From contig NC_088300.1 of assembly GCF_032854445.1 (NCBI RefSeq), forward strand, positions 5,642,001-5,706,000: a stretch of 64,000 nt of DNA. The letters are read 5' to 3'. The notes beneath the pieces are model-generated. The model made no database searches. It was given only the letters and a program-made list of their open reading frames with translations, and was not told the origin of the DNA. Positions 5,132 to 43,536 of this stretch are shown here, in pieces (positions within the stretch are counted from its first letter, which is position 1; every line of letters starts with the position of its first letter). Source of the stretch: Liolophura sinensis. Taxonomy: Eukaryota > Mollusca > Polyplacophora > Chitonida > Chitonidae. Position numbers and translations under genes: made by a program.

Positions 5132-5449
5132 ATGTCTGTGATCGAACCCACGATGAACTCCAAAGAAACAGACTTCGCTTCCCGTTTCGACAACAAACCT
5201 CTAAATTCAGCAAGTATAGTAGAAATTAACGAGCGTGAAGGCCCTTATGCGAAATCTGAAGATACAAATGTTGATTCGAAAGACCCAGTGCAAGCTCAGT
5301 CAAATGACAGCCATGGATACAAGAGAGTACCAAGTGAACAGGCTGCAGAAGCTGAAGATGCTCACAGTGGAAATAAAAATAGGCCAAATGTTTCAGTTCG
5401 TTCAGAACCTGGCAATGACCGTGTGCCGGTGACACCATTGTCAAAGGAG
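5132..5449 (+). CDS. TPCN3: TPCN3 exon 1 (aa 1-106)
   Basis: It begins MSVIEPTMNSKETDFASRFD and ends ..TPLSKE in phase 0 at donor GTACGT. The segment is polar and acidic with no membrane helix, the cytosolic N-terminus of the channel. A second in-frame Met lies at residue 8, but the first ATG is kept as the more upstream start. Confidence 0.85.
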
Positions 5450-8400
5450 GTACGTACACCTTAGTTTGGAAACAGTTCCTGATCTTTCTGATCTTTTCCT
5501 TTCTCTTGACATCCACAAGAAGTGATGTAGAAGTTATGTCCTTATTTTTTATGCCTGATGATTATGCAAGGGTTTTGTGTGTGTGTGTGTGTGTTTTTTT
5601 GTTTTGTTTTTTTTTTTTTGTCAGATTTAAACTGTGTTGCCTTAGGCAACCTTAGCTGAACTTGAAGATATATTTTGGGCTACTCGGTTTCCAAAAATAT
5701 CCTCATCCAAGGATCAGACTAATAGGTTCACATTGCAGTCTTAATTTTACAGGAGTTGCTGATTGCTGCCACTGTTGTGCTCGATGCAAAGAAAGGAAGA
5801 AACATGTATTTCAAACCTGAAGGGAAATATGTTAGGTATGACTTCAGTTTTGAAGATTTGACATTATACACTGATACAGCTGTGTAAACTTTCATGTGTT
5901 TAATGCTTTTACTTATGAACAATGTTCTCTTAAAACATTTTCCAAACTAAATAATGTCTGTGTCAAGGGTTTTTTTATGAAGAAGATTGCTGTAATTTAT
6001 ATGTATGTGTATATATATATATGTCAATGTGTGTGTGTAGAGGAAGTTTTATTTGGCTTTCCTTGTAAATATATACTTTATGATTATCCTACAGTCTTGT
6101 GTTTCTGTGATTAAATAAAAGCATAATTAAATTGATGTATGTCTGAAGTCAGATCAATAAAATATGCATTCTGTCTTTGTAGAGCATACTTATTGTACCA
6201 GAAGTGGTATCTGGTCTATGCACTTTACTTTGTAATTGCTGTGAATCTGTGCTTGGCCTTATTTGAGAAACCAGCATTACCTGGTTGGGAAGCTCCATAT
6301 TGGGTGAGTTACCTGCAAGTTGAGTGAGAAACAAATGTGTATGTTTTCATTTTCATTTGCAAATTCAGAACATTTATCATTCACTTGAAAGTAAATACCA
6401 TGTATAGATGAAGGTTTGGTCCATGTAGTCAATAGTCAGAGTACTCAGTGAGTTTCATTTTGTTGTCAGGTTGATAGCACATTTATCAGATGCAAACTCC
6501 AGCTCATGAGTTTTAATTTTGGCTGACTAAGTTTTAAAGCAATAAATTAAATAAGAAAACAAAACATAATTTCATATCAATTCCTGGGATGCTTTAAAGC
6601 AAACATAATTTGACCCTGGAATATATAAGCTATGTTATCTATTAAAATTGAGAAATTAATTTTTATATATAAATCACTTTATTTCACCTGAAGTTTGGTA
6701 TGTAAAAATACACTTTCAAAAGCACATAAAGATCTTGAAATGATACTTTTGATGCTAACACTGAAGTTTATCTGATAGCTTAAGAAATAAATCAAACTTC
6801 ACAAAAAAACTTTAAAAAAACAGCACCATATGGTGGATGAATCGATTAGAATCAAGTGATATGTGTCATTATTATTATTTATGGAGTGATCTTGTGGTGT
6901 TTTCATAGGCTACCATGATCATTGAAGTAGCATGCCTTGGATTCTTCATATTCCGAACAGCACATGCATTTTACTTTGATTCAAAAAGTAAATTTTGGAG
7001 AGATGCCAAGAACCTCATGGTTATTGGTGGCATAGTGGTAAGTACAAAGCAATCATAATTTTAAAATCTATGTATCTTGTTGCTCTTTCTTTGTTTTTTT
7101 TTCTGCATTTAGCAGCACATAGTGGACTGTACTTCCTTGTATCTATCACTTTAATATTTGTGCACATGGTATGTTTGATTCATTTATTTATTTCAGTGGT
7201 GTGTAATGATGTATTCCAGAAAAGTTTTCACTTACATGAAAGTGTATAGGTGTAATGTTGGAGAACACAGGACAAAACCTGCAGGAAATCACCAAACTCT
7301 CAAATGACAGGGCAGTCATTATCTTATGGGGACCAGCTCAAAGTCAAACTGAAGCTGAACTAGTATGAGCTGTATTAAAACTCAAAGACTCTTTAGTCAA
7401 AAGTGTGAAGATTTTGAAGACAGCTAGTCCTCTTCTTGCACATGAATGTTGCTTTGAAACATACACTGTACCAGTGAATTACCATACCATTTACATAAAG
7501 CTATAGCGATTTCAAGTATTATAGCTCTATGAAAATATTTATAATCCTGAGCAGATACAGAGGAGGATGTTAATTTCATGTAACATATTTCACCACAGTA
7601 TGTGCAGTGAATGGTCACAAACAAATGCTAACTGGCAGAACAATTAAGTGATATTGCATTCATGGGTGTGTATATATGTAGAAATCCGTAATGTTTCATA
7701 CTATCATCCAGTCTTTGTAAATGTTTGAATGCTTGAACAGGAAGTGTTTTGGGGATAGGGATGAGCTGTATTTGTATGGTCATGCCCTTATTGTGTATAA
7801 CCTTTTTTTACAGCTGACCTTGATTGACATAATATGTTACATTGCCTGGTTTAATGTGGGACCGGCAGATACAGCTGTTCGTTTTTCCAGACCAATACGT
7901 CCTCTATTCATCATTAACTTTCCAGATGGTCGTCAGGTAAGGTTTAAGGTTTTTCAGATGTATATTTAATTATAGATACCTGGCATTCCATTTGGTTGAT
8001 TTCCTTTTGAAGAAATCAATAGATTTTTCATAGTACCATTTCAATAGACCTCGTATAATTTTTATGCAACTCTGCCTACAGGGTTGATATGATATTTTGA
8101 AGTTATAGGCATATTACAGAATAGTTTTCATTTCTTACTTTATTAAGCTTATGTACACTCAATGAATGGGTATAAATATTAATTACTTCTTGGTGCACAT
8201 CTCATGGTAGTATTGTACATGCATATTTCTCTTCCCCACTGTAACTTGGTTATTCCTTTAGCATTATCAGATAAAAAATGACCATTATGTGATTTAATCT
8301 TCAGTGTGGCAGTGAGGGCCCCTAACATTGATTTGTTCCTTTTGATCTGAGAAGAAAATATTAGAAATGCTTTCTCATGATTTTCTTTTTTTCATTTTAG

Positions 8401-11400
8401 ATAAGGAGAGCATTTCGAAACATCCGGCGAACCATACCAGAAATTGCCAATGTGCTTCTTTTGTTTTTCCTAAGTCTGCTTCTCTTCTCTTTATTAGCTC
8501 TTAAGCTTTTCGTTGAAAAGTGAGTGAATTTATATTCTTCCTTATTTTATTAAGCAGTCTGACAAACAACTAACCATCCAAATGTGTGTCAGGTACTTTA
8601 GAGAGGTACAGCATTCACCTCAGGTCACTTAAATAAACTTGACAGATGATCTTTAGTGAGTGACTGAGTGCTTGGGGTTTAACGTTGTACTTAACAATTT
8701 TTCATTCATATGATGACGAAGGAGTCATTGGAGTGTGTGTAATGTGCCTCCTTGTTGCAGGATGGATTTCCACCGCTCTTTTTCTAGTGCTGCTTCACTG
8801 AGACGACTTACCGCGGGCAAGTAAGCCGCCTCGCCCGAACCATTATACTGATACGTGTCAACCAGTCATTGCACTATCCCCTTAATGCTGAACGCCAAGC
8901 GAGGAAGTTACAACTTTCTCTGTTAAGGTCTTCTGTGTGACCCGACCTAAGATTGACCCTGGATCTTCTGCTCCTGAAGCAGACGCTGATGATCTTTACC
9001 ATTATAGTGTAATATTCTTTGGCAAAGCATAAATCATCACTCAAATAGACAAAATGTATGTAAATATACAAACATATGTAAAAACTTATTGACACTGGGC
9101 CTTAAATATAACAGATTCTGTACTTCTGCAAAAATTCCTTGTCTTGTATGAAGTTATCAGTGAACAGTTACTTGTATTACTGTAGCTGTTCAACCTTTTC
9201 CCATGTTTGCAAAGTGTTTATGTAAGCTTATTCTGAAGGAATTTTTCTGTGCTGCTTGATATTATTGGACTTTCTGTGAAAGTTGCTTTTTGATATGTGA
9301 AAAGGTTGAGGAATTAGGGTACACTGTTATTTTTTCCACCCCAAAGGACCAATCTTCAGTATCCTAATGGGAGGCCTTACTTCAAGAATTACCTTGACAG
9401 TATGTGGGATATGTACATTCTGGTCACGACAGCCAATAACCCAGATGTGATGTAAGTCTTTAGTTTTGTTTTGTTTTTTCAATTCGCTTGCAATATATCG
9501 TGGGTATACCTTAAATTCTCAGCTAATTTAACCAGTAAAGCAAGCAAGATTTTATAGAGTAAAATGAATCAAATGGGAGCTGAAGGACTTCCTAAAAATC
9601 AGAAAAATCAGATCAGATAACACTCCTTGACTAGCAAAACATTAACAGCATACATGTAGTGTATGATTATGGTCAACTTTGCAGAGGATTTAGGGTATTC
9701 CAGTATACGGACAAGTAATATGTGTGCATCAAGGCTGCCTCTTCAGAACACATCTGCTGATCAGAATTATCATGACGTGGTTCTAGGTTAATTTAAAAAA
9801 TAACTATACAGATACGACTGTATCTTTTAATATGAAATAGACCTAAACAATTGCGATTGATGTCATAATCTACTATCCTTATTTGTCTGGTGATTTTTGT
9901 ATGCAGAAAATGATGTTAATGAGTGACTATTATGCCTCATCGATGTTTTGGACAGGATGCCAGCCTATGACTTGAACAACTGGTATGCCATCTTCTTCAT
10001 TGTCTACGTGATTATATGTTTGTACATATTCATGAGTATTGTCCTGGCTGTCATTTACAATAACTACAAGAAAAACTTGAAGGTATGTAAGAAGCAGTCA
10101 AATTTTGGTGCACATGGTTACCTAAGCCCTCTCTCGCTTTACAAATACACTTCACCCTCTTTACATTTATGTACACCTCACCCCTTTACATTTATGTACA
10201 CCTCACCTCGTTTACTGGCATGTACATCTCACCCTGTTTTTATTTATGTTCCCCTCTCCATCTTTACAAGTATACCTCGCCTACTTTACATATACACTAT
10301 TCCATCTTTACATGTACACGTTACCCTTTTTACATGCTCACCTCTGCCTTTTCCGTTTATGCCAACACATACACTTTTTACATGAATACCTATCCCTCTT
10401 TACATTTTTGTACACCTCACCTTCTTTACATGTACACCTCTCCCTTTTTACATGTATACCTCTCCCTCTTTACATGTTCACCTCTCCCTTTTTATATGTA
10501 TAGCTCTCCCTTTTTACATGTACACCTCTCCCTCTTTACATGTTCACCTCTCCCTTTTTATATGTATAGCTCTCCCTTTTTACATGTACACCTCTCCCTC
10601 TTCAAGTTCATGTACACTTCTCTCTCTTTACATTTATACCTCATCTCTTTACATGCACACATCATGCTGTTTACATGTACACCTTTCCATCTTTACATAT
10701 GCACCTCACCCTCTATACATTATTGTAACCTCTTCATCTTTACATGTACACCTGACCCTCTATACATGTACACCTCTCAATCCTTACATGTACAACTCTC
10801 CTTCTTCGAGTTCATTTATTCTTCTCTCTCTTTACATTTATACCTCATCTCTTTACATGCACACCTCTTCATCTTTACATGTGCAGCTCTTCCTCGTTAC
10901 ATGCACACCTCTCCATCTTTACCCATACACCTCTCCATTTTTACATGTACACCTCTCCCTCTTTACATGTACACCTCTCCATCTTTACATGTACACCTCT
11001 CAATATTTACCTATACACCTCTCCCTCTTTACATGTGCACCTCTCCATCTTTACATGTACAGCTCTCACTCTTTACATGCACACCCCTCCCTCTTTACAT
11101 GCACACCTCTTCATCTTTACATGTACACCTCGCCATCTTTACCTACATGTATACACCTCTGCATCTTTACATGTGCACCTCGCCCTCTTTAACTATACAC
11201 CTCTCCATCTTCATATGTACTCCTTTCCATCCTTACATGTACACCTCTCTATTTTTACATATGCACCTCTCCCTCTTTACCTATACACCTCTCCATCTTC
11301 ATATTTACGCCTTTCCATCTTTCCATGTATACCTCTCTATTTTTACATATACACCTCTCCCTCTTTACCTATACACCTCTCCATCTTCATATGTACTCCT

Positions 11401-14400
11401 TTCCATCTTTACATATACACCTCTCTATTTTTACATATACACCTCTCCCTCTTTACCTATAAACCTCTCCATTTTTACATGTACACCTCTCCCTCTTTAC
11501 CTATAAACCTCTCCATTTTTACATATACACCTCTCCCTCTTTACCTATAAACTTCTCCATTTTTACATATACACCTCTCCCTCTTTACCTATAAACTTCT
11601 CCATTTTTACATGTACACCTCTCCATCTTAATGTGTTCACCTTTCCTATTTAAAACCTGCAATTCAGTGTTTGCTAATGTATTCCTCAAAATTCTGACCA
11701 AGATCTTGTAACAAGTGTCTGTATATATTGTCAAAGAAAACTTTAAAATTCTGAATGTTGTACTCACTCAGAAGCTTTTGTTTGCATGTAGTTGCAAATT
11801 TATTTTCACTTGGCTTAAATTTACCATTGAAAACCTTTCACATATAGCATGGCTGTTTCAAGTGATGTGGTCAGGAGGACTTGCCTTTCTATCATTAAGA
11901 CATACAAGGTGCACAAATCTGTGTATAGATACAAATAATTTTGATCAGCATCTAGTCTGTGCTGTTTATTTTCTTTTTTGCAAAACACATAAGTTTGAAA
12001 ATTACCAGAGCTTTCAGTGTCATTATAGAACCCTTCACCTGAAAATATGTAATTGCTACACACAATGTACATAAAGACAGATAAGTACTACATGTGCACT
12101 TAATTTTTATCGTGTTTATGTCTCAGAACGAAGTGAAGATTTCTGTGTACAACAAGCGTCGTAAATTGGCTCAGGCATTCCACATCCTGAAGATTTGGCA
12201 GAATGGCCGTTATGTTGTGCCACAGGACAGGTGGTTAGAGTTGATGAAGCTGGTTGTCCCTGGGAAGAGCGATACCTGTATCGACCTGTTACTCAAGGTT
12301 TTGGACACCAATGGAGATTTGACCATAGGTAATATTACCCATTATCATAGGTGCTAAATTACATATGGAGATTTCATCATAGATAATGTTACCTGATATT
12401 TTCAATGCTAAATTACATATGCAACTTTGATCATAGGTACAGGTAACATTACACATTATTATTAGTGATAAATCACATATGGAGATTTCACCATAGCTAA
12501 GATTACCCATTATCATCAGTGCTAAATCACATATGGAAATTTGACCATAGCTAAGATTGTCATCAGTGCTAAATTACATATGGAGATTTGACCATAGTTA
12601 ACATTACCCATTATCATCAGTGCTAAATCACCTATGGAGATTTGACCATAGTTAACATTACACATTATTATTAGTGATAAATCACATATGGAGATTTGAC
12701 CATAGCTAACATTACCCATTATCATCAGTGCTAAATTATGTATGGAGATTTGACCATAGTTAACATTACCCATTATCATCAATGATAAATCACATATGGA
12801 GGCTTGAGCATAGCTAACATTACCCATTATCATCAGTGCTAAATTATGTATGGAGATTTGACCATAGTTAACATTACCCATTATCATCAGTGATAAATCA
12901 CATATGGAGGTTTGACCATAGCTAACATTACCCATTATCATCAGTGCTAAATTATATATGGAGATTTGACCATAGTTAACATTACCCATTATCATCAGTG
13001 ATAAATCACATATGGAGGTTTGACCATAGCTAACATTACCCATTATCATCAGTGCTAAATCACCTATGGAGATTTGACCATAGTTAACATTGCCCATTAT
13101 TATTAGTGATAAATCATATATGGAGATTTCACCAGAGGTAACATTACATACTATTGCGAATGCTAAACTAGAAATGGTGATTTGACCATAGCTAACATTA
13201 CCTATTATTATTAGTGCTGAATTACACATGGAGATTTGATCATAGGTAACATTACCCATTATTATTAGTGCTAAATCACCTATGGAGATTTGACCATAGT
13301 TAGCATTACCCATTATTATTAGTGATAAATCACATATGGAGATTTCACCAGAGGTAACATTACATACTGTTGCGAATACTAAACTAGAAATGGTGATTTG
13401 ACCATAGCTGACATTACCCATTATCATCAGTGCTGAATTACACATGGAGATTTGACCATAGTTAACATTACCCATTATCATCAGTGCTAAATCACCTATG
13501 GAGATTTGACCATATCTAACATTACCCATTATCATCAGTGCTAAATCACATATGGAGATTTGACCATAGTTAACATTACCCATTATCATCAGTGCTAAAT
13601 TACATATGGATATTTGACCATAGTTAACATTACCCATTATCATCAGTGCTAAATCACCTGTGGAGATTTGACCATAGTTAACATTACCCATTATTGTTAG
13701 TGATAAATCACCTGTGGAGATTTCACCAGAGGTAACATTACGTACTCTTTCCAATGCTAAACTAGATATAGTGATTTGACCATAGCTAACATGACATTTG
13801 TGTTAAAAAATAATAATGAGTCATTTTCTCAAAGAAAATCTTTTACAATAACCGAAGAAGACTGTTGGCAACAAATTTTCTGAATATTGAAGTGATGGAG
13901 TCCATGCATATTACTTTGTTGATGTATTGTACACACCTTGGGTGATGAAAGCAAGGATATGACGTGCCTAATGTCAGGATAATGAGTTTATTTTGAATTT
14001 AAAAAGTGTTCTTTTACATGAGCAAATGTGTAATAATATACAATTTTTGCATGTTTCAGAGTCGAACATTGTTATTTGTCAGCTCAAGATAGGTAATGTA
14101 CAATGAGAGGGCAGCATGAGTTGTACATCAGCTGACGATAGCTGAAATATCATGATGTTCCACTCTGAAACATACAATAATTGTTTAATTATACCTGACA
14201 ACCCGATCACTCAAGACTTTATTTACTTTTTCAACCCATCACTCAAGACTTTATTTACTTTTTCATACATAAATGGGTTAGAGTAGGGAAGTATTGAAAC
14301 ATATAATAATTGTGTTACTAGTATTATACCGGATAACCCATCCATCAGGACATTATTTACGTTTTTACGTGAATGGGTTGCTGTCATTTGCATTCTATAC

Positions 14401-17400
14401 ATGTACAAATCATCAGCGCTCTACACCTTGAACCAAGGTTGGTCTGTCATGTTAACACATTCTCTGTGACTTGTCAAAAGCAATGACTACCAAAACAGCG
14501 ACTGTCAAAGCAGACAGCAGCTGTAACATAATACAGCACAAAGGGAGACTACCTAAGGCATGCCCAAAAATAAATGTGACTTAGTATGGTCAGCGTGCTA
14601 CAGTGCATTTGTTTCTTTAATGACATCACAGTGTGCAACCTCAGGAAATGCTGAACCCCATGTGTTGTGATATGATCCACTGGGGGAACAAAGAATTTAT
14701 CAAAGTTATAATCATGATCTGGTATGATAGTACTTCTCCTTGCAGAAAAGAACGAGTTTCTGACCTTGGCTGACCTCCTGCAGCTGCCCGTGACAGAGGT
14801 GAAGGACAGGATGACAATCATTGAGAAGCACTTCCCAGGGGTTTTTAACCATCGAGCCAGTCAAATTCTGCACATGATTGTGAGACACAGGTCTGATGTG
14901 CAGAAAGTTGTCTTCTTATCATCTTAAGCAGATAAAATCAGTCATGACCTCTTTTTTTAAAGTGAAAGAAAGCTAAAGTAAGGATGAGAACTTTATTCTT
15001 TTAATTATTTTTTTGACTTTAAGATAGTTGAATGCATTCAAGTGTTTGAATGCTATGGTGGACCATTATGACCCATGTAGCTGGGTACATCACAAGGTCT
15101 TTTTCGGACTGGGAACTTATGGGTTAATGTTGAACTTACTCACGATTCATTATTCACGATTAGGGTATGACGTAAATAATGATAGAAACAAATTATCCTG
15201 AAAGGTCATATAAAAATGAAGTGACAAGGGCATCCTTAGTACCTTGCCTTGTCCAGTATGGTCCATAATAACCATCTTATAGTTCAAACATTTGAGAGTA
15301 TTTAATTCAGTGAAAAAACAACAAACCCTAAACCTAAGAAAAAATAATGACAATATATTGACAATTCACAGTGGCCTTTCTGATGATGTTCACTTTATAT
15401 GTTACACCAATTCATACAAGGATTCCAAACTTGGTACTCAAGTTTATTTTGACATGAACTATGTTGATATTTGACTCACCCAATAACATTTTGACTTTGG
15501 GGAGTTTTTGTGGGAATTACATGTAGGGATTACTCGTATGCCAATGAATAACAGCTCACATGAAATGTATGTGTATGGACATAGGTTATTTGTCTAGAGA
15601 CACAATACAAGGTCAGTGTGATGTCATTACATGGATTTCTGCTGCATATTTGGAGAAGGAAAAGATCTGTGGTATAATCCAGCTGTATAATGTGGAAATA
15701 AGAACTGAACTGCATTATAATTAAGCTGCACCAAGTATAATTGAAAAGCTAACTGTGGCATATTTCAGAGTATAGTTTATGAAGATAGCTACAGGTGTAA
15801 AAATAGACTTACATGGACCATCAAGACTGGTACAACCGTTAAAGTTGGAGGACCGTATTTGCGCTAAAATTCAACACAAAAAGTGCATTTTTTAGGGAAA
15901 TAGATGTCATAATATACTGAACAAAAATATAAACGCAACACTTTTGTTTTTGCAATTTTCACAAGATAATGTTGTGATTTTTGTCAACATAGTTTTTATC
16001 TGCTCAGACATTTTGGAATCGCCTCAGAGAAGCGAATTTGCGAGCCCGTGGACCACTCCAAGGTATTACCCTTACGTATGAACAACACCAAAGTCGGCGC
16101 AACTGGGTTAACATTCATATTAGTGGACAATGTGTTTTAGGATGAATGCCGTTTTCAGCTACTCAGATCCCACAGGAGGCAGCATGTTTGGCCGCGCTAA
16201 AAGCCCTATGAGACCTAATTCGACGCCGTTCTCGTGCGTGGGGTGAAATATAGTGGTGGTGAGGTATTTGTGTGGGCGGTGATAAGTCATGGGTATCATA
16301 CTCAATCCGGCACCCAATAGTCGTCCCATTTGCCCGGGGTCATGGGGTAACATTTCACCATGACAATGCCTGTCCTCAAATGCAGAGCATTTCTACAGGC
16401 CGAAAGGATTGAAGTGCTAGACTGGCCAGCATATTCACCTGATTTGTCCCCAATCCTCGACCAGTGTGTTTGTCGACGATATCCAGTTTCAGGTAACATC
16501 ACGGAGTTGTGTTTGGCCCACACACAGGAGTGGGAAAACATTCTGCAAGTCACAAGTGACCATCTCATCAGCCCTATGCGTCAATGATTTGTAGCAGTGC
16601 AGCAGGCCAATGGCAGACATACTGGGTATTGAAGTGTGGAATTTCCCAAACTGACCCCTCCCCTGTCTCCTAACTTCCCTCAGCATTACTATAGGTTGTC
16701 CGTTTCCATTAGTGATGGAAATGTATTGCTAAGAGTCCATTTTATGCCCCCCTGAAAGGCGGTAGTGAAAGGAATGTGATAACAGAGTTAATTTTATCAA
16801 AATATTGGGTGTTACATTTATATTTTTGTTCAGTTTAAATTACTGACAATGAAACTTACGTATTTCCAGTGGGATATCACCCAGCTTCCAAAAAAAACTC
16901 TCCCAGAACAAACCTCAGAACACTCCGAGAACACTCCCAGAATTTGACAAAATGAGTAACATAGTTATAAGGGAAATGCAGGACTTAAGTGCTTGTAGAT
17001 TTATTCTAAACTCCTCATCATACATGTACATAGGCTTTCGTCTTTTCTTCTCTTCCCATACAGATGCTTTCGCTACTTCTTTGATTTCATGATTTTCGTG
17101 AACGCTTTTTGCATTGGATTCAGCCTGGATGAAGCGGATTGGTTTTTTCTGATCATATTTACCACTGAGATTATACTAAAACTCTATACATTTGGAGCGA
17201 AGGAGTTTTTCTCCAGGTTCTGGAATATGTGAGTACTACTCAGAAGCAGGTGGCAAAGTATGCTCTGTTTCCATCACACATAAACTTTCTTTTACCATGG
17301 CTGTTATACACAACTTCTTAATCAGACTTGTTTTACCATTACTTAACTGCTGAATTTCACTGATACACCTGTAAAATATTCTTCATTATGCTATAAAATA

Positions 17401-20400
17401 GTAGTTGGGTGAATAAAAAAATATTTTATTTTATTTTAATATGGCGATTGTCTTGTGTTTTATTTGCAGATTTGATTTTTTTGTGATTGGTACTGCATTG
17501 ATTGCCTCCATTGTAGAGGCCATAATTGGTAATGGTATGTGCTGATCTTCACTTATTATTTATGTTATTAAATATGCAGACTACTTTACTCTGGTTAATC
17601 CGTGTGCATGTAGAACACTTTTGGTTACCATTGGAATTTCTCTAGACATGTATATAAGCTACTGGCCTACATTGGTAAAACTCCAAACAGCCTCTTTTTA
17701 CTTCTAATATTCCTGGTTTATGCTAACACTAAACTGTATCTGAGGCCCTTATAACTTTCAGCATAATATTGTCTTCAAAATTCTGCAAAATGAATGTGTG
17801 AAAGAAATATGTACTGTTATAGAAGCTTCCTGCATATCCGTGAGATCTACATTTTATTGTCTGAAATGGCATGAAATCACTTAGTTTAAAACTGTACATT
17901 AAATGTTATCCGATACAGATTCATATCTGGTGGTAAAATTTGTCAAAATTTTTATTCACAATTTTTTTTCAGACAATGAAGAATTCAGTACCCTTGATCC
18001 ACTGTTGGTGCTGAGAGTAATGAGACTGATCAAGATATTTGGGAGCATTCAGAGGTACTGTACACATTATCTTATACACAATTTACCAAGATATTTGGGA
18101 GCATTAAGAGGTACTGTACACATTATCTTATAGCATTTACCAAGATATTTGGGAGCATTCAGAGGTACCGTACACATTATCTTATACACAGTTTACCAAG
18201 ATATTTGGGAGCATTCAGAGGTACCATACACAGTATCTTATACACAGTTTACCAAGATATTTAAGAGCATTCAGAGATACTGTACACATTATCTTATACA
18301 CAATTTACCAAGATATTTGGGAGCATTCAGAGGTACCATACACATTATCTTATACACACTATACCAAGATATTTGGGAGCATTCAGAGGTACCATACACA
18401 GTATCTTATACACAGTTTACCAAGATATTTAGGAGTATTCAGAGGTACCGCACACATTATCTTATACACACTTTATCAAGATATTTGAGAGCATTCAGAG
18501 GTACTGTACACATTTTGTTATACTTAGTTTACCAAGATATTTGGGAGCATTCAGAGGTACTGTACACATTTTCTAATACACAGTTTACCAAGATATTTGG
18601 GAGCATTTAGAGGTACCATACACATTATCTTATACACAGTTTACCAAGATATTTGGGAGTATTCAGAGGTACTGTACACATTATCTTATACACACAGTTT
18701 ACCAAGATATTTGGGAGCATTCAGAGGTACCATACACAGTATCTTATACACAGTTTATCAAGATATTTGGGAGTATTCAGAGGTACCATACACAGTATCT
18801 TATACAAACAGTTTACCCAGATATTTGGGAGTATTCAGAAGTACCCTACACATTGTCTTACACACAGTTTATTAAGATATTTGGGAGCATTCAGAAGTAC
18901 CGTACACAGTATCTTATACACAATTTACCAAGATATTTGGGAGCATTTAGAGGTACTGAACACATTATCTTACACACAGTTTACCAAGATATTTGGGAGC
19001 ATTTCAAGGTACCGTACACATTATCTTACACACAGTTTATCAAGATATTTGGGAGTATTCAGAGGTACTGTACACATTATCTTACACACAGTTTACCAAG
19101 ATATTTGGAGCATTCAGAGGTACCGTACACATTATCTTACACACAGTTTATCAAGATATTTGGGAGTATTCAGAGGTACTGTACACATTATCTTACACAC
19201 AGTTTATCAAGATATTTGGAGCATTCAGAGGTACTGTACACATTATCTTACAAACAGTTTACCAAGATATTTGGGAGCATTTCAAGGTACCGTACACATT
19301 ATCTAACACACAGTTTATCAAGATATTTGGGAGTATTCAGAGGTACTGTACACATTATTTTACACACAGTTTATCAAGATATTTGGGAGTATTCAGAGGT
19401 ACTGTACACATTATCTTATACACACAGTTTACCAAGATATTTGGGAGTATTCAGAGGTACCGTACACATTATCTAACACACAGTTCATCAAGATATTTGG
19501 GAGCATTCAGAGGTACCATACACATTATCTTACACACAGTTTACCAAGATATTTGGGAGCATTTCAAGGTACCGTACACATTATCGTACACACAGTTTAT
19601 CAAAATATTTGGGAGCATTTCAAGGTACTGTACACATTATCTTACACACAGTTTATCAAGATATTTGGGAGCATTCAGAGGTACCATACACATTATCTTA
19701 CACACAGTTTACCAAGATATTTGGGAGCATTTCAAGGTACCGTACACATTATCTTACACAGTTTATCAAGATATTTGGGAGCATTCAGAGGTACCATACA
19801 CATTATCTTATACACACTTTACCAAGATATTTGGGAGTATTCAGAGGTACCGTACACATTATCTTACACACAGTTTACCAAGATATTTGGGAGCATTCAG
19901 AAGTACTGTACACATTATCTTACTCACAGTTTATCAAGATATTTGATTGTCATTGTATGACTGAAAAATTATTAAGTAGGACATTAAACACCCAGCAGTG
20001 ACTCACTCACTCACCAAGATATTTGGGAGCATTCAGAGGTACCGTACACATTATCTAACACACAGTTTACCAAGATATTTGGGAGCATTCAGAGGTACCG
20101 TACACATTATCTTATACACAGTTTACCAAGATATTTGGGAGCATTTAGAGGTACCATACACATTATCTTATACACAGTTTATCAAGATATTTGGGAGCAG
20201 TTAGAGGTACCATACACATTATCTTATACACACTTTACCATGATATTTGGGAGCATTCAGAGGTACCGTACACATTATCTTATACACACTTTATCAGGAT
20301 ATTTGAGAGCATTCAGAGGTACCATACACATTATCTTATACACACTTTATCAAGATAATTGGGATCATTCAGAGGTACCATACACATTATCTTATACACA

Positions 20401-23400
20401 CTTTACCAAGATATTTGGGAGCATTCAGAAGTACCATACACATTATCTCATACACACTTTACCAAGATATTTGGGAGCATTCAGAGGTACCATACACATT
20501 ATCTTATACACACTTTACCAAGATATTTGAGAGCATTCAGAGGTACCATACACATTATCTTATACACACTTTATCAAGATAATTGGGATCATTCAGAAGT
20601 ACCATACACATTATCTTATACACACTTTACCAAGATATTTGGGAGCATTCAGAAGTACCATACACATTATCTTATACACACTTTACCAAGATATTTGGGA
20701 GTATTCAGAGGTACCATACACATTATCTTATACACAGTTTACCATGAAACACTATCATGATGTAATGAAAACGTCGAGTTAACACATTTGGCTCTTGAAG
20801 CCTGCCTTAGAATCCCAGCATTCAATTGTATACACATGTAGTAAGGTGAAATCTTTCAGTATTAATCAGTAAGCTCTACGCATATGGTTGTTGGATATGG
20901 TTTAATGGTCTTTCTGTGAATACTTATTTTGAAAATACGTGTGAGGTTGAAAGACAAAGTATCTACTTTCATATATGGTTGGAAAAATCTGTTTTTGCTG
21001 AAAAACTCTGTAACGACATGAACTTCGGATATCTGTGGCCCCCTCTTACCATTTTGAAGCTGCACTGGAATAACACTTGGAAAATGTCAAATTAAGTAGT
21101 TCTGTGTGGCTATAGAACTTGATCTATATGTATAAAAACTTGAAGTTTGAGTTCAGAAATTCAGACAAGCTGTGTTTAAGAACAGGATTGTTTGATTGTA
21201 TCGTTTCTGTTTACCATTCTGTTTGAACTTTTGCACTTACTTTTCTGTATCTGTGCATGCATATTTATTTTCACTTGAGCTTTTTGTATTGCTACTGTAT
21301 AACACTGTATTTTACATTGTATTTCTGCAATCTTTTGAACTATTTGTTTTTCTGTATATCAAAAACCTAATCAGCATTTGATGATTCTCGAGTTCATGCA
21401 AGTTTAGGCAACTTGTGCTTGGGGACTCTTGTAAACTAACATGATGAAAAGACATGATATTACAGTAGTTGTCAACTAGCTACATTGTTGAGCCAACAGT
21501 CTTGCCTATGCATGCAAGATGTACAGTATATTCAGTCTGTCAACTAGCGTAAAATCAAACCTTGTAGCCAGGCTAGTTTGGGAGAGACTTCACCTTGTCT
21601 TGTCCAGACCTGCACTAATTTGCCATTAAGACTCTGAAATGCCAAATAGGTTCATTTTAATAGTGTGGATTGTAAAAGGGACTCTCAGAAAGGATAAGAA
21701 AGAGTTTCTGCACTAATGTCTCCACTGTTGGACAAACAATGTCATCATCAATTTTGTGGGACCCAGATATCATTAGAACACCGCAATGTTGCTACTATAC
21801 AACAATCCCTTGCTGCAATTTTTCCTCCCATCCACAGTGGGACATGGGTAGATATGCCTGTTCAACAATTCTCAGGCTTCCCTAAGTTTACAAATCTATA
21901 CAGGTATTGCACTGTCATTTTTCTGTTTCTCCTTTGCAGGCTTTTACTGTAAGCTACTAGTGTTGCTGCCATTTCTTTATTTGCTCCTGTCTTTATTTCT
22001 TTGCTTCAGATTTAAAGTGATTATTTTGACAATTGTCAACATTGGACCATCAATTCTCTCCTTTGGAGGTGTAATTTTTGTAAGACTTCAAATACAGTTT
22101 ATCCTCTCTAAATCCAACCTTCTAGCATTTCCTCTTGCCCCAGAAACACCGCTTTGTATCCAACTTGCATGTTGAATGCAGTATATTTCGGCAGACAAAT
22201 TGCATGCTCGACAAACTAGTTTTTTACTCCTATTTTGACAGTATGCTTGGTGTGCATGGAAAGCTGTTTGCTTATTTTTCCTTTTGATTGGCTGTTAACA
22301 TTTTTTATCAAAATTTAGTTTGATTCCATTACATAACTAGGACATTATTTATGCATGATGCATTTTACAGTTGATTATGGAATTATAAGAGAGTCTCTCT
22401 AGCAGTTTTCAGAAGTTGAGAGGAAGTTTCTAATTGAGTTGGATTATTCTAATCCTGGGAAGGTCTGCCGGCAACCAACAGATGGTTGTGGCTTTTCCCT
22501 GGGCTCTGCCCAGTTTTCTACCACCATAATGCTGGCCACCTTAGTATAAGTGAAATATTCTTGAGTATGACGAAAAACACCAATCAAACAAATGCGTAAA
22601 TAAATCTAAATCGGCACTACCTGTAATTTGTGACATTGCTTGCCATTTACATAAAAGTGCAAATATTTGTAAATATTTTTGTACTCTGGGGAAATTGGGA
22701 GATCTGACTGAGACGGTGCAAAAGAAAAAGAAAAGTCAAGTGTGTCAAGATTAAAATTAGAGTGTAGCTTCTTACTGTGACCTCTTTAAGTGTAAGTTTG
22801 ACCTCTTACATCTGAAGTCTATTTGCCCCCTCCTACACCCTCCCTCCCCCTTCCCTTCAACAGGTGTCACAGCATACACTGATTGTTTAGGAATGTTGTG
22901 GTATGGGGGTCAACAGTGGGAGCTCACAGTTAAATGATTTTATTATGCCAAACTTGATAATGTACTTCTTCAGCTCCATCAACTATAGTTTCCTGAGCAT
23001 TTCTTAAAATTACTAATTATTTTTTTTCTTTCGAATGTTTACTTTTACATACATACATTACATACATTTACTTCATTTTTCCATGCACACTTATACAATG
23101 TTTGATCCCTAATTTCCCACCTGCTAATCTATAAACTATACACCTACAGATCCTTTATTTCGTTCAAAGAATGCACTGACTTAAAATGTTATATTTATGC
23201 AGGCCAGTTGACATCTGGCTGGGAATAATAAGTTTTGGTGACTAAGAGGAGATAACTTTGATAAATGATAGCTATTGGTGTGGTTGAAGGAGGATATGGT
23301 GTTCTTAACCTCCAGTATCATACTAGTACCTTTATGACTGATACTGACAGCATGTTTAATGCTGACTTATTTCCTCTGCTTGGTATGTTGCATGTGCAGT

Positions 23401-26400
23401 GGGGCTAACTCATTATACTTTATAGGTCTTACACAGGTTGATTGATTTGTAAAGTAGCAAATGTTGTTGTAAGTGTTGAAGTGTGTTACCAAATTCGACG
23501 TAAAGTCAGTTTCATATTTGTGTCAGCCATTATACTGTAAATGACCAATATTAAGAACACATCAGTTCCCATATGGGCTGTGGGAATCTTTAAACCAGGT
23601 TGTAAGTGTTCCTGCTGGCTAAATTCCTACAAGGTTCATTGAATTGAATAAGGTGCTTGGTGAGGTTTCCTCCCAATCTTTGATCGGCTTTCTCCTGATA
23701 ACTGGGTGTAGAGAACTAAAACAGGTACTTGGTTAGGTTTCCTCCAAGCTTTGATAAGCTTCCTCCTGGTAACTGGGTGTAGGGAACTAAAACAGGTGCT
23801 TGGTTAGGTTTCCTTCAAGCTTTGATCAGCTTCCTCATGATAACTGTGTGTAGGGAACTGATTCATGTGCTTGGTTAGGTTTCCTTCAAGCTTTGATCAG
23901 CTTCCTTCTGATAACTGAGTGCAGGGAACTGAAACAGGCTCTTGATGAGGTTTCCTTTAAGGTTTGATCAGCTTCCTTCTGAAAACTGGGTGTAGGGAAC
24001 TGAAACAGGCTCTTGATGAGGTTTCCTCTAAGCTTTGATCAGCTTCCTCCTGATAACTGGGTGTAGGGAACTGAAACAGGTGCTTGGTTAGGTTTCCTCC
24101 AAACTTTGATCAGCTTCCTCCTGATAACTGGGAACAGGAAATTGAAACAGGCTCTTCGTGAGGTTTCCTCTAAGCTTTGATTAGCTTCATCCTAATAACT
24201 GGGTGTAGGAAACTGAATCAGGCTCTTGGTGAGGTTTCTCCCAGTTTCCTCCCATCATAATGCTGGCTGGCGTCTCATAAGTAAAATATTTTTGAATACA
24301 GCATAAACTTCCAATGAAATTCAAAATATTAAAAGACTATTTCAGTAGTCAGTGTAAACCACATTATAAATAAATATGGTGAATGTTTTTCACCTGCACA
24401 TGTCTTTCTCTTGGACAGATCATCTACTACATGTTTGCAGTTGTTGGCATGGAGATTTACCAAGGGAAGATTGAGTATTTTGAAAACAGTTACAATACGT
24501 CTTATCTACCCGATTCCAAGAAATTTTGTGGAGCAGAATCTCTTAAGGACAGTGATTTCTTCAGATTCCGCTACTGTAGTAACAACTTCAATAACATTCT
24601 GAAGGCGTTTGTGGTCCTCTTTGAGCTGACAGTAGTCAACCAGTGGCATGGTATCCTTTTATTGTTAACTGGCATATACTGTTACCTTCATTGCTGTTAA
24701 TTTTCAACTAACACCATAACTGCAAACTCAGATGAACAAAAATGACATCCTTTGTGCTTACCATGTAGTGATGTATGCTCACCATATAATCATGTGCTCA
24801 CCATATAATCATGTGCTTACTGTGTAATTGTGTGCTCATTATGCAGTCATGTGCTCACTGTGTAATCATGTGCTCACTATGTAATCATGTGCTCATTATG
24901 CAATCATGTAATCGTGTGCTCACTGTGTAATTATGTGTTCACTATGTAATCATGTGCTCATTATGCAATCATGTGCTCACCATGTAATCATGTGCTCACT
25001 ATGTAATCATGTGGTCCCTGTGCAATCATGTGCTCACCATGTAATCATGTGCTCAATACACATTCCTGTACTCAGCATATAATCATGGGCTACTTTTCCT
25101 TATCCTGATCCAGTGTTATCTTCGGGGTTTGTGATAGTGACTCATAAAGCTGCCAGGCTCTACTTCTTCCTCTTCCATTTGTGCACTGTTGTCATTGTTC
25201 TCAAGTAAGTGAACAACAAATGTTTTAACTCAATTATATTCTCTTATGTGGAGTTGTTTCTCTGGATTTTCGAAAGTTTGATATCATTATAGCCTTTAAT
25301 TGATCTACATGTATGTGACTGTAATGGGTATGTTTATTGATTGCTGTCATATGACATGAATTGATGAGTCAATATTTACACCCTCTTTATAACTGACTCA
25401 TAAAGCTGCCAGGCTCTACTTCTTCCTCTTCCATTTGTGCACTGTTGTCATTGTTCTCAAGTAAGTGAACAACAAATGTTTTAACTCAATTATATTCTCT
25501 TATGTGGAGTTGTTTCTCTGGATTTTGATGACCTTACCATCACACATTGTACCTTTGCATACATGATTTTTCTTATTTCTTATACACAGACAAGGCAAAA
25601 TTTGCATGAACACAGTGCATATGTAAATGACTGCCACAGTAATGTACACATGTTCCACTAATATCTCCTATCTTTAAATGCAAATCTTAATATTAATTGA
25701 CCAAAAGGCATAATATACACCAAAGTATTAAGAAGGTCCTCCAATGCCTATTTTCTCTTTCAGTATATTTGTGGCCTTTATTCTGGAGGCGTTCATCTTG
25801 GAGTACTCTTTGTCAAGAGCCGGGCATCTGGAGTCAGTTGTGGAATCCAAGATTAAGGAAATGGGACTTGGAATTGGAGCGTATGTATTGATGTAGTAGC
25901 CCCTGTTCATTGATTATAGAATGCAGATGTACAGTGGCTAAAGATATTGTTAGACTTTGTTACGGTATGTCTGTATTAGGAAGGTTCAGCACTTCAGTGG
26001 AAGTATAAGGTACTCGTATCCTGTTGTATTAAGGATTCATCTTTATATGTTTTTGTACTGTTCACCAAGTGTTATGTAATGGCAGGAGGAGGTGGCTACT
26101 GACTAATATCATTTAATAATGTGTGACCTTACATAGCTTGGGATGCTTTGTGCCTTCTGCTGCACACATTTGTATACAAAAGTATTCATCCATGTCAGAA
26201 AGGGTCCACCTAGTCTCATGAAGAGTGGGAGGTTGTACAGACCTAACCTTGATGTAAAGGATGTCATTTAAGCCTAAGGATCTGTTGATCTTTGTGTGGA
26301 ACTATCAGTACTCACCCATCCCTTTAGAAGGTTTTCCATATCTGGAGGCTCATGTATCTGAAACTGGTCACTCAGCTTGTAGAATGTACCCTAGCCTGAT

Positions 26401-29400
26401 CATGTGGATCTGTTATGGCTCCTTGACCTGCAGATGACCACCAAGGTCAGTTGATGTCAGTAGAAATCTTTATGGGCTTGTTAAGACATTTGAAAGATTT
26501 CAAGGCCAAAGAGGATCGCCCAGATCTGTTAATGTTGATTTGGATGTAAAGTGTCATCCAGGTCTGTGGAATATCACCCGGATCTGTTAATGCTCATATG
26601 GATGTAAAGTGTCATCCAGGTCTGTGGAATATCACCCAGATCTGTTAATGTTCATATGGATGTAAAGTGTCATCCAGATCTGTAGAAGATCACCCAGATC
26701 TGTGATTGTTCATATGGATGATAATATCAGTAGAATATCACCCAGATCTGTTAATGTTCATATGGATGTAAAGTGTCATCCAGGCCTGTAGAAGATCACC
26801 CGGATCTGTTAATGTTCATATAGACGTGAAGTGTCATCCAGGTCTGTAGAAGATCACCCAGATCTGTTAATGTTCATATGGATGTAAAGTGTCATCCAGG
26901 CCTGTAGAAGATCACCCGGATCTGTTAATGTTCATATAGACGTGAAGTGTCATCCAGGTCTGTAGAAGATCACCCAGATCTGTTAATGTTCATATGGATG
27001 TGAATATCAGTAGAATATCACCCAGATCTGTGATTGTTCATATGGATGATAATATCAGTAGAATATCACCCAGATGTGTTAATGTTCATATGGACGTGAA
27101 GTGTCATCCAGGCCTGTAGAAGATCACCCAGATCTGTTAATGTTCATATGGATGTAAAGTGTCATCCAGGTCTGTGGAATATCACCCAGATCTGTTAATG
27201 TTCATATGGATGTAAAGTGTCATCCAGGTCTGTGGAATATCACCCAGATCTGTTAATGTTCATATGGATGTAAAGTGTCATCCAGGCCTGTAGAAGATCA
27301 CCCAGATCTGTTAATGTTCATATGAATGTAAAGTGTCATCCAGATCTGTAGAAGATCACCCAGATCTGTGGTTGTTTATATAAATGTGAAGTGTCATCCA
27401 GGTCTGTAGAAGATCACCCAGATCTGTTAATGTTCATATGAATGTAAAGTGTCATCCAGATCTGTAGAAGATCACCCAGATCTGTGGTTGTTTATATAAA
27501 TGTGAAGTGTCATCCAGGCCTGTAGAAGATCACCCAGATCTGTGGTTGTTTATATAAATGTGAAGTGTCATCCAGGTCTGTAGATAACCCAGATCTGTTA
27601 ATGTGTAAAGGTCACCCAGATCTGGAGATGTTTATGCAGATCTGAAAAGGTTCACCCAGACTTGTAGGAGATCACCCATATCTGTGTTCATTTAGATATG
27701 TAAAGGCTGATCAACTAGAGGGTAACATGGACCTAAAAGGGATTATCTATGCCTTTAGAAAATCTTCCATGGTGATCCGTCTGTAAGTTCATTTGGCTCT
27801 GTACAGCTTTATCCAGGATATAGGCTTACCAAGGTCTTTAGAAGGCCATCCAGATTTGTGGCTGTTCTGGTGTGGATCTTTGAAGTCTCAACCAGGCCTG
27901 TTGAAGTCACATCCAGGCCTGTTGAAGTCTCATCCAAGCCTGTTGAAGCCTTGTCAGATCTGTGGATGTTGATACAGACCTTGAGGACTCATCCAGACAT
28001 GCAGAAGATGTCCATTCGAATATGCAAAGGCTTATCCGAGTGTGAGTTAGTCACAAATAGAGGCTAAATTTAAACTCATTTAGGATTCATGATAAAGGCC
28101 TTTTTTTGCCAACATAATATTGAGCTGGTCAGCATTTGATGCCAATGGACCAGATAATGATGACCTATAACTCATGAAAAAGTCATTATTGGCTTTGCTT
28201 TCACAGTAAACCAAAAGGTCCGTTTGCTCCGAAGCCTGATAGGATGGATTTAGTAGATAATGAAGAAAACACTGACCAAACTGACCACGCTGATCACGCA
28301 GAAGACTCAGACAATGACAGTCTGCCTGATATCTCCAAGGAAAAAGGATTCCGCTTCCATTTGAAAAAGAAAAGTAAGTGTTAAGAAAGAAAGGCCTGTA
28401 TGTCATGAATAACATGCATTATTGCAGTATCTTTGCAGTTTAAACTGCTTTCATGGACATTTTCTCTTAAAATGCCATTAATTGATAAAGACACATTTTA
28501 TCCTCTGTGGAGTAAAGAAAGAGAAATTATGGTGAAGAAGTGTTAGATTAAAAAGGCAGAAGTTTGTGGTTAGCTCTGTTTGAAACCTGCCATCATAAAT
28601 CAGGGTAATATTGTGTATTGTGTAAAATTGCACGTCTTAACTTTTCTCATGTAAGAAAAGATCTGAAACTTCTTAATTTGTCCACCAAGCAAAAATTATT
28701 TTCTTTTTCTTTTCAGACTTTTTATGCTCTCTAGGCAAACAAATTGAAAAAGATGTATACAATTTTGTATTTTCTTGTCTGCAGGTTACAATACTTAAAC
28801 ATTTTTATCACATTGACATATTATACTGTAGGAATTGTATGTCAAGATGTCTTTTTCATCAGTAATGATGTCGTAACGAGTCTGATGTCATGCAAGGATT
28901 TCTGTAACTGTTACTTTGTAACTGCTTTGGTCAGTTTCTGGCTTCAATGGCAGCACATTGAAAATCAGCTGTTTTAACAATGTGAACTACACTGTAAATC
29001 ATAAATCACTGAGATTTCACTGGGATGCAGGTTCATGTGGTGATAATCTACTTCCACTTTAAACTTGTGCTGAGTAGATCAGATTTCTGGTGGCTAAACC
29101 AACCAACTGAAAAGGGCAAGTTAAAGTTTCACACATACAAGCTGTTAAATATGATGAAATTGTGCGTGTCACACACACTTTTTGTTAGATCTGTAGGAGG
29201 AAAAATCTGTTACACAAGAGAATGTCCAAAAAACATTTTTAACTGCGAAAGTTTGATATCATTATAGCCTTTAATTGATCTACATGTATGTGACTGTAAT
29301 GGGTATGTTTATTGATTGCTGTCATATGACATGAATTGATGAGTCAATATTTACACCCTCTTTATAACTGTTTATTAGGGACAGCATCCATGGTGCAGGC

Positions 29401-42579: not shown

Positions 42580-42993
42580 TTTTTGTATTTCAAACGGCAA
42601 TTATACGGCTCCGTAGTTTGGACATTATATCTAGATGTGTTGAAGACACACATGGATGGCAGAGGGTTTAGTTGACAACAGCATATCCATGAACATCTTT
42701 CGGAATGGAAGAATGTCTCCATGCAATGTTCATGGGGTTAAATATGTGTAAATTTTGATGTACATTGTCCACATTTTTATGCTCAAAGCTCATACTTGTA
42801 ATGAGCGTAAATTTTGATCTTTGAAATTCCGGAATGTTGTACTCGAACTACGACACTCATGAGAGTAGTGTGAGCCAGTCCAAGGAAACCATCTCATCTC
42901 AACAGAAATGTGCACGAAGCCGTCTTCACGTTATGAGCACGTTACCGTCATGGCGACGTATACAGCTGGTTGCATGGTTTAGTTATGCTAAGA

Positions 42994-43257
42994 TTTTTTT
43001 TTTTTTGATTGGTGTTTTACGCCGTACTCAAGAATATTTCACTTATACGACGGCGGCCAGCATTATGGTGGGTGGAAACCGAGCATAGCCCGGGGGAAAC
43101 CCACGACCATCCGCAGGTTGCTGTCAGACCTTCCCACTTACGGCCGGAGAGGAAGCCAGCATGAGCTGGACTTGAACTCACAGCGACCGCATTGGTGAGA
43201 GGCTCCTGGGTCATTACGCTGCGCTAGCGCGCTAACCGACTGAGCCACGGAGGCCCC
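42994..43257 (-). mobile_element. SINE-1 full copy, first of a tandem pair
   Basis: Minus orientation. It ends at the right with the tRNA-like head (minus: CCGTGGCTCAGTCGGTTAGC). It is flanked by AGTTATGCTAAGA at 42981-42993 and 43258-43270. The poly(T) at the left is the tail. Confidence 0.92.
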
Positions 43258-43270
43258 AGTTATGCTAAGA

Positions 43271-43536
43271 TTGATTTTTTTTTTTGATTGGTGTTTTACG
43301 CCGTACTCAAGAATATTTCACTTATACGACGGCGGCGAGCATTATGGTGGGTGGAAACCGGGCAGAGCCCGGGGGAAACCCACGACCATCCGCAGGTTGC
43401 TGACAGACCTTCTCACGTACGGCCGGAGAGGAAGCCAGCATGAGCTGGACTTGAACTCACAGCGACCGCATTGGTGAGAGACTCCTGGGTCATTACGCTG
43501 CGCTAGCGCGCTAACCGACTGAGCCACGGAGGCCCC
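43271..43536 (-). mobile_element. SINE-1 full copy, second of a tandem pair
   Basis: Nearly identical to the preceding copy, differing at a handful of positions such as GGCGAGCATT for GGCCAGCATT. It is flanked by AGTTATGCTAAGA at 43258-43270 and 43537-43549. Confidence 0.92.

What the first reader, a model, noticed from the sequence alone, without database searches (positions are those of the whole stretch)
17973..20745. Exon 13 end and its 5' splice site amplified about 48-fold into a 56-bp intronic array
Seen: the last ~26 nt of TPCN3 exon 13 plus donor CAGAG|GTACTG form the first unit of a 2.7-kb array. Nearly all later units keep AG|GTAC, several identical to the true donor over the visible context. 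Each also carries ACACAG, so every unit has an acceptor-like and a donor-like site about 28 nt apart. The encoded segment is the IIS4 voltage sensor (KIFGSIQR), so use of any decoy would shift the frame (56 is not a multiple of 3) and likely end the channel before IIS5. The spliceosome must choose the first of dozens of near-equal donors. This also bears on AGGT tandem-duplication models of intron gain.
Basis: partly seen in the sequence, partly recalled or inferred. Interest (0 to 1): 0.78.

Follow-up and report, generated by a model that had tools for sequence, protein, structure and literature searches.

The report
Splice-site tandem arrays in chiton introns
In a chiton ion-channel gene the end of an exon and its splice signal have been copied about 46 times into the following intron, and sampling the same genome shows this at roughly one exon edge in twenty, so cells must keep picking the copy next to the exon.

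Summary
Exon 13 of a two-pore channel 3 gene ends inside the first unit of a 56-bp array (18031-20744): one true donor and 46 donor-equivalent copies, 39 of 46 with AG|GT. The assembly matches the chiton Liolophura (published as L. japonica, corrected to L. sinensis). The array is not unique. Exon 9 of the same gene starts a second array (12311-13792). Among 59 ion-channel exons fetched without regard to arrays, 4 donor and 3 acceptor edges (7 of 118) lie inside arrays. One NAXE intron has a donor array at one end and an acceptor array at the other. Protein continuity points to the exon-adjacent copy as functional: first donor, last acceptor. In 11 of 11 donor arrays scored, some GT in the array scores at least as high as the true donor. 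Best explanation: tandem duplication across exon edges, tolerated because exon definition favours sites closest across the exon. Arrays fall on exon edges more often than a crude uniform model predicts (7 of 13 against 1.8; 7 of 27 against 2.4 with short repeats included), which is suggestive only. No RNA data were available; splice choice is inferred.

The parts
17973..18054 (+). TPCN3 exon 13 (82 nt), end of the IIS4 voltage-sensor segment; its last 26 nt (18029-18054) belong to the first unit of the array
   Evidence: in-frame gene model; gapless to zebrafish TPC3 across the 13/14 junction
18055..18060 (+). true 5' splice site of exon 13, GAG|GTACTG
   Evidence: 4.2 bits, second lowest of 27 donors scored
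18031..20744 (+). 56-bp array: exon 13 end + donor + first ~30 nt of intron 13; 46 decoy donor positions, 39 AG|GT, 45 GT
19946..20014 (+). 69-bp insertion resembling a SINE tail, flanked by 11-bp repeats CAAGATATTTG (19935-19945 and 20015-20025); it interrupts a unit, so the array is probably older than the insertion
   Evidence: likeness to a SINE tail is by eye and recall
22010..22079 (+). TPCN3 exon 14, whose 3' splice site is the expected partner of 18055
12127..12328 (+). TPCN3 exon 9; its last ~18 nt (ATGGAGATTTGACCATAG) encode part of an EF-hand-like loop DTNGDLTIEKNEF completed by exon 10
   Evidence: the EF-hand name is recalled
12311..13792 (+). second exon-end/donor array in the same gene, 54-bp units; most decoy donors are dead (AG|TTAAC, AG|CTAAC); 5 of 25 full decoy units keep G|GT
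5132..28373 (+). TPCN3 gene model, 18 coding exons found (3' end of the coding region not reached), 820 aa

Best explanation
A short stretch spanning the end of exon 13 and the start of intron 13 was tandemly duplicated, and the copies multiplied into a 2.7-kb minisatellite by slippage or unequal exchange. The array grew into the intron while the exon copy is held by coding constraint. It is tolerated because exons flanked by long introns are recognised across the exon: the acceptor of exon 13 pairs with the nearest donor, which is the first copy, so the downstream copies stay intronic. The same process has hit many exon edges in this chiton genome, at donors (first copy functional) and at acceptors (last copy functional). 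Shown here: the anatomy, the recurrence, and that protein continuity fits the exon-adjacent site in the cases where both exons were found. Inferred: the duplication mechanism, and that the spliceosome picks the exon-adjacent site by exon definition.
For: Direction: the exon copy lies in a conserved channel segment, so the exon is the source. Recurrence: a second array in the same gene. Of 20 C1 arrays holding three AGGTAAGT, 15 showed their start, and 8 of these 15 begin at a coding-like exon end; database matches for 3 of the 8: PF02485 1.5e-6, GH31 7e-13, RPC1 9.8e-8. A downstream exon continuing the protein was found for RPC1, GH31 and a DERA-like gene. NAXE intron: 20-copy donor array, and an acceptor array of roughly 27 copies (estimated from its span) ending at the exon start, E 1.4e-20. 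59 Ion_trans exons: 4 donor and 3 acceptor edges inside arrays. Splice choice: PMC9225289 (passages) reports exclusive use of the upstream of two identical 5' sites in exon-defined minigenes. In 11 of 11 donor arrays scored some GT in the array scores at least as high as the true donor, so strength alone cannot pick the first.
Against: No RNA evidence. The same paper reports that without a strength filter the downstream 5' site is preferred overall, that near-equal pairs favour the upstream site in only 60% of events, and that competing 3' sites favour the upstream one, a preference only reduced under exon definition; so its rule supports donor arrays better than acceptor arrays. The exon score was trained and tested on one gene (15 of 17 true donors, 2 of 23 intronic negatives pass) and its cut-off was set after seeing the scores. 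The DERA-like exon had no Pfam or PDB match; its name rests on recalled motifs. L005, L011, L020 and L022 rest on the score alone, and L011 could end at the next copy. The donor matrix has 27 donors including those tested, and RPC1, DERA, GH31 and GCNT were found by asking for perfect decoys, which favours strong decoys there; L005, L011, L020 and L022 were not scored.
Confidence: 0.74

Rival explanations
1. Chance overlap (a rival to preferred seeding, not to tolerance): this genome is full of tandem arrays seeded uniformly, and some necessarily start at exon edges.
For: On C1 up to 72 Mb the listed hits make 16 arrays for AGGTAAGT and 15 for the reversed motif TGAATGGA (my count). Tandem hits per single occurrence are of the same order: 626 of 26,582 and 468 of 29,090. 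Two of 12 control arrays whose start was visible begin just past what looks like an exon end (L090, L091). With a laxer exon score of 2.0 the donor excess is not significant (8 of 15 against 10 of 40, P 0.06).
Against: 7 of 13 arrays near 59 exons span the edge against 1.8 expected, simulated P 0.0007, or 7 of 27 against 2.4, P 0.006, with short-period repeats included. First donor coding-like in 8 of 15 arrays against 4 of 40 isolated single AGGTAAGT, P 0.0015; at cut-offs from 2.5 to 5.0 P is 0.0015-0.015. Null crude, cut-offs set by hand, samples small.
Confidence: 0.42
2. The decoys are functional: retained as regulated alternative donors, a poison extension, or a U1 sponge.
For: 45 of 46 decoys in the exon 13 array keep GT; the T at +2 is invariant in the 45 full units; all 39 AG|GT decoys would give a stop.
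Against: The G at +1 ranks only 25th of 56 columns and many other columns are invariant too. In the exon 9 array 5 of 25 full decoy units keep G|GT; in NAXE 8 of 19 decoys have lost GT and 8 more read GTAATG. Array age explains retention equally well.
Confidence: 0.07
3. Assembly artefact: the array is misplaced or its copy number is wrong.
For: HiFi depth is only 14x (PMC11068029, passages).
Against: Mean HiFi read is 8,347 bp, three times the array; units differ (mean pairwise identity 0.90); no N in the window; other loci show the same anatomy.
Confidence: 0.03
4. Intron gain by AGGT tandem duplication (Rogers model): the array is making or has made a new intron.
For: Units carry AG|GT like the model's duplicated segment.
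Against: The unit contains the donor of an intron that has its own distant acceptor at 22010, not an exon-internal AGGT. Whether intron 13 is old was not tested.
Confidence: 0.05

Closest known systems
Variable internal tandem repeats at exon-intron boundaries of human segmentally duplicated genes (PMC2812944, passages)
   Same: Minisatellite units overlap exon-intron boundaries and bring extra splice signals.
   Different: There the repeats change exons or form new introns in young primate paralogues (27 intron modifications); here the copies lie in introns of old conserved genes, the mRNA is predicted unchanged, and arrays reach dozens of copies, on donor and acceptor edges.
Intron gain by tandem duplication of AGGT segments (Rogers 1989 and Hellsten 2011 as cited in PMC4974935, passages)
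   Same: Tandem duplication across a splice signal; the potato case of PMC4974935 duplicates an intron-exon boundary.
   Different: Those make a new intron from exonic sequence; here an existing intron is extended and its original site is predicted to stay in use.
Exon-centric proximity rule for competing splice sites (PMC9225289, passages)
   Same: Predicts that the donor nearest the upstream acceptor wins among equal donors when flanking introns are long.
   Different: That work used pairs of competing sites in human data and minigenes; these are natural cases with up to 46 competitors. Its support for 3' sites is weaker.
Intronic minisatellites / VNTRs (general knowledge)
   Same: Units of tens of bases with moderate divergence.
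   Different: The unit includes a coding exon end plus a splice site.

Membership tests
Two-pore channel 3 (TPCN3) | similarity to TPC3 over most of the protein, better than to TPC1 or TPC2 | tested here: met
   6v1q TPC3 E 7.1e-176 over residues 97-764; TPC1 6.6e-67; TPC2 1.7e-49
Minisatellite array | tandem head-to-tail units of about 10-100 bp | tested here: met
   period 56, 34.2 and 13.1 copies in two stretches, 89% and 94% matches
Exon-edge (donor-spanning) array, as defined here | first unit contains the 3' end of a real coding exon and its 5' splice site | tested here: met
AGGT intron gain (Rogers model) | the duplicated segment is exonic and its AGGT supplies both ends of a new intron | tested here: not met
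   the unit already contains an intron start, and the intron has its own distant acceptor
AGGT intron gain (Rogers model) | orthologues lack the intron | not testable with these tools
   says no relatives of this genome are held
Exon-centric splice-site proximity | exon-adjacent site is the one used in RNA | not testable with these tools
   no RNA data; only protein continuity
Variable internal tandem repeat at exon-intron boundary | copy number varies between individuals or paralogues | not testable with these tools
   one assembly only

The most novel reading that the evidence does not exclude
In this chiton lineage splice sites are preferred seeds of minisatellites: about 6% of exon edges (7 of 118 sampled, 95% interval 2.4-11.8%) carry arrays of the exon edge itself, on donors and acceptors alike. 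That would be a standing genome-wide experiment in which the spliceosome chooses the exon-adjacent member among many near-identical sites, and a main route of intron growth.
Probability: 0.37. Interest if true: 0.78.

Novelty: new variant of a known kind. Interest (0 to 1): 0.6.

Why it matters
How the spliceosome picks one site among equal neighbours has largely been studied with pairs of sites in minigenes. Here one genome appears to offer many natural cases with several to dozens of copies, at both edges of exons, so existing RNA-seq could test exon definition directly. If the rate holds beyond ion channels, tandem duplication at splice sites would also be a substantial, little-noticed source of intron growth, and of errors for gene predictors and short-read aligners.

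Tried and rejected
Functional decoys: rejected as the main reading because the +1 column is no more conserved than many others and other arrays have lost many of their donors. Preferential amplification of the donor octamer genome-wide: not clearly supported by the counts. Larger samples with CAGGTAAGT x3 and AGGTATGT x3 were dominated by a few huge arrays and not pursued. Acceptor arrays found by TTTTGCAG x3 (20 arrays fetched): one proved by homology (NAXE), L044 and L025 possible, the others not exon-linked as far as I could see by eye. Four other larger arrays in TPCN3 (22, 71, 19 and 58 bp) do not contain exon ends, by eye. PDB search with the L011 exon gave nothing. In one search the line 'GT at +1+2: 11 of 26' for the exon 9 array is off by one base because that unit was cut one base earlier; I used the hexamers printed there. 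Hand-set choices: the exon score cut-off of 3.2 was set after seeing the scores (one search gives other cut-offs); the 13 arrays of the seeding test are those with period 20 or more and about 2.4 copies or more, L143 taken with its unit of about 56 bp as read by eye although TRF reported 169 x 2.0, and L115/L119 counted as one array; one search repeats the test with 14 further rows (short-period repeats and one 36-bp row of 1.9 copies), leaving out three rows inside the matches. Rows dropped: L162 duplicates L127 (59 loci kept). Of 110 Ion_trans matches 59 were fetched, mostly those under about 450 nt; longer ones and several short ones were not.
Full report
What is there. The window is G000:C6:5642001-5706000 of a 609,464,459-base assembly in 632 contigs. 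This fits the chiton assembly of PMC11068029 (609,495,693 bp, 632 scaffolds, HiFi mean read 8,347 bp at 14x; passages read), whose species was corrected from Liolophura japonica to L. sinensis (PMC12441733, whole text). The identification rests on those numbers.

The gene. Eighteen coding exons on the + strand join into an open frame of 820 aa; the 3' end of the coding region was not sought. The best solved relative is zebrafish two-pore channel 3, E 7.1e-176, ahead of TPC1 at 6.6e-67. The exon 13/14 junction falls in a gapless part of that alignment, so exon 13 ends at 18054.

The array. From 18031 to 20744 the exon end and intron start recur in 56-bp units. There are 47 donor positions, the true one and 46 copies; 39 of the 46 keep AG|GT and 45 keep GT (counted). 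Mean pairwise identity is 0.90 over 45 full units. Where one unit meets the next, intron TTTACCA is followed by exon AGATATT, and the sequence after the array reads TTTACCATGAAAC; this fits a first duplication at a very short shared CA, an inference. A 69-bp insertion like a SINE tail, with an 11-bp flanking repeat, splits one unit, so the array probably predates it.

Consequences of decoy use. All 39 AG|GT decoys give a stop; in the six cases printed it falls at residue 617 once and 621 five times. Eleven of 39 keep the frame in length. The true donor is weak, 4.2 bits in a matrix built from 27 donors of this genome; of 125 GT sites in the array 11 score at least as high and 40 come within 1 bit.

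It recurs in the same gene. Exon 9 ends ATGGAGATTTGACCATAG|GTAATA, and that segment begins a 54-bp array at 12311-13792. Here most decoys are dead: 5 of 25 full decoy units keep G|GT (hexamers).

It recurs in the genome. A search for three AGGTAAGT in tandem gave 626 hits against 468 for the reversed motif. The listing is capped; the places listed, all on C1, make 20 arrays, all fetched. In 15 of 20 the array start was visible; in 8 of these 15 the first copy is a coding-like exon end with a codon-and-acceptor score of at least 3.2. The same score passes 15 of 17 true TPCN3 donors (its training set), 2 of 23 intronic negatives and 4 of 40 isolated single AGGTAAGT. One of the failing singles, L047, is a guanylate cyclase exon (Pfam 8.3e-13), so the single rate is somewhat underestimated. 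Three of the eight have a database match. For RPC1, GH31 and a DERA-like gene the next exon after the array continues the protein, judged by recalled motifs.

Acceptors too. Of 20 arrays with three TTTTGCAG, L038 ends in the exon start GYKPTVFYPKK, matching apolipoprotein A-I binding protein, 1.4e-20; that this is NAXE is recalled. The same intron begins with a 20-copy donor array of 43-44 bp: of its 19 decoys 8 have lost GT, 8 read GTAATG and 3 keep GTAAG. Protein continuity needs the first donor and the last acceptor.

Frequency without selection for arrays. Of 110 Ion_trans matches in the genome I fetched 59 with 300 bases either side. TRF reported some repeat in 26 of 59, many of them short. 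Arrays containing the exon edge were read by eye at 4 donor edges (L123, L125, L143, L160) and 3 acceptor edges (L110, L124, L144): 7 of 118 edges, 95% interval 2.4-11.8%. L160 has about 2.9 copies of a 154-bp unit that includes much of the exon. Several exons come from the same genes, so they are not independent. TPCN3, which was picked because of its array, gives 2 of 34.

Preferred seeding? If array starts were uniform within 300 bases of an edge, 1.8 of the 13 arrays chosen near these exons should span it; 7 do (simulated P 0.0007). With 14 further rows, mostly short-period repeats, it is 7 of 27 against 2.4, P 0.006. In the AGGTAAGT comparison 8 of 15 against 4 of 40 gives P 0.0015, or 0.014 with unevaluable arrays counted as failures; at other cut-offs P runs from 0.0033 to 0.015 (2.5 to 5.0) and is 0.06 at 2.0; with unevaluable arrays as failures it is 0.11 at 2.5 and 0.25 at 2.0. 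This points to preferred seeding or retention at exon edges, but the nulls are crude, cut-offs were set by hand, and octamer counts show no clear excess of donor arrays over the reversed motif. I call it suggestive.

Mechanism. PMC9225289 (passages) reports that for exons with long flanking introns, sites closest across the exon are preferred among near-equal competitors, and that two identical 5' sites in minigenes gave exclusive use of the upstream one. It also reports a downstream 5' preference overall before filtering for strength, and an upstream preference among 3' sites that exon definition reduces; the rule therefore supports donor arrays better than acceptor arrays. Exon 13 has flanking introns of 438 and 3,955 nt. 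In 11 of 11 donor arrays scored at least one GT in the part of the array seen scores as high as the true donor, so position or context must matter; four of the eleven were found by asking for perfect decoys. No RNA evidence was available.

Literature. Seven searches of the held library (listings seen) showed no report of exon-edge arrays of this kind; that covers open-licence papers and those terms only. Closest are human boundary tandem repeats (PMC2812944, passages) and intron gain by tandem duplication (PMC4974935, passages).

Noticed in passing
window 25138-25270 and 25394-25526; 25271-25395 and 29246-29370: A 133-bp stretch covering the end of TPCN3 exon 16, its donor and intron start is repeated identically 256 bp downstream; the 125 bp between the copies recurs identically about 3.9 kb further on. 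A recent second kind of exon-edge duplication, or an assembly join.
   Followed up: partly
L102 (C1:26354000-26358000), about 386 and 589: The GH31 exon after the donor array is itself present twice in tandem (FQLFGIPLAGVDICGF and FQLFGIPLVGADICGF), as in mutually exclusive exons.
   Followed up: no
C1:2078160-2083994 of the genome: A 54-bp array of about 5.8 kb whose unit has acceptor-like TTTCTGCAG directly followed by donor-like GTATGT.
   Followed up: no
window 10146-11629: A 22-bp array starts about 60 nt past the donor of TPCN3 exon 8 without including the exon; control arrays L090 and L091 likewise seem to start just past exon ends.
   Followed up: no
window 42981-43549: A 279-bp repeat (with TGATTGGTGTTTTACGCCGTACTCAAG) present as a 96% matching tandem pair.
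   Followed up: no
L011 (C1:3804600-3806200): The exon before this array may end at a GC donor (ACAG|GCGAGT) with AGGTAAGT decoys downstream, or at the next copy.
   Followed up: no
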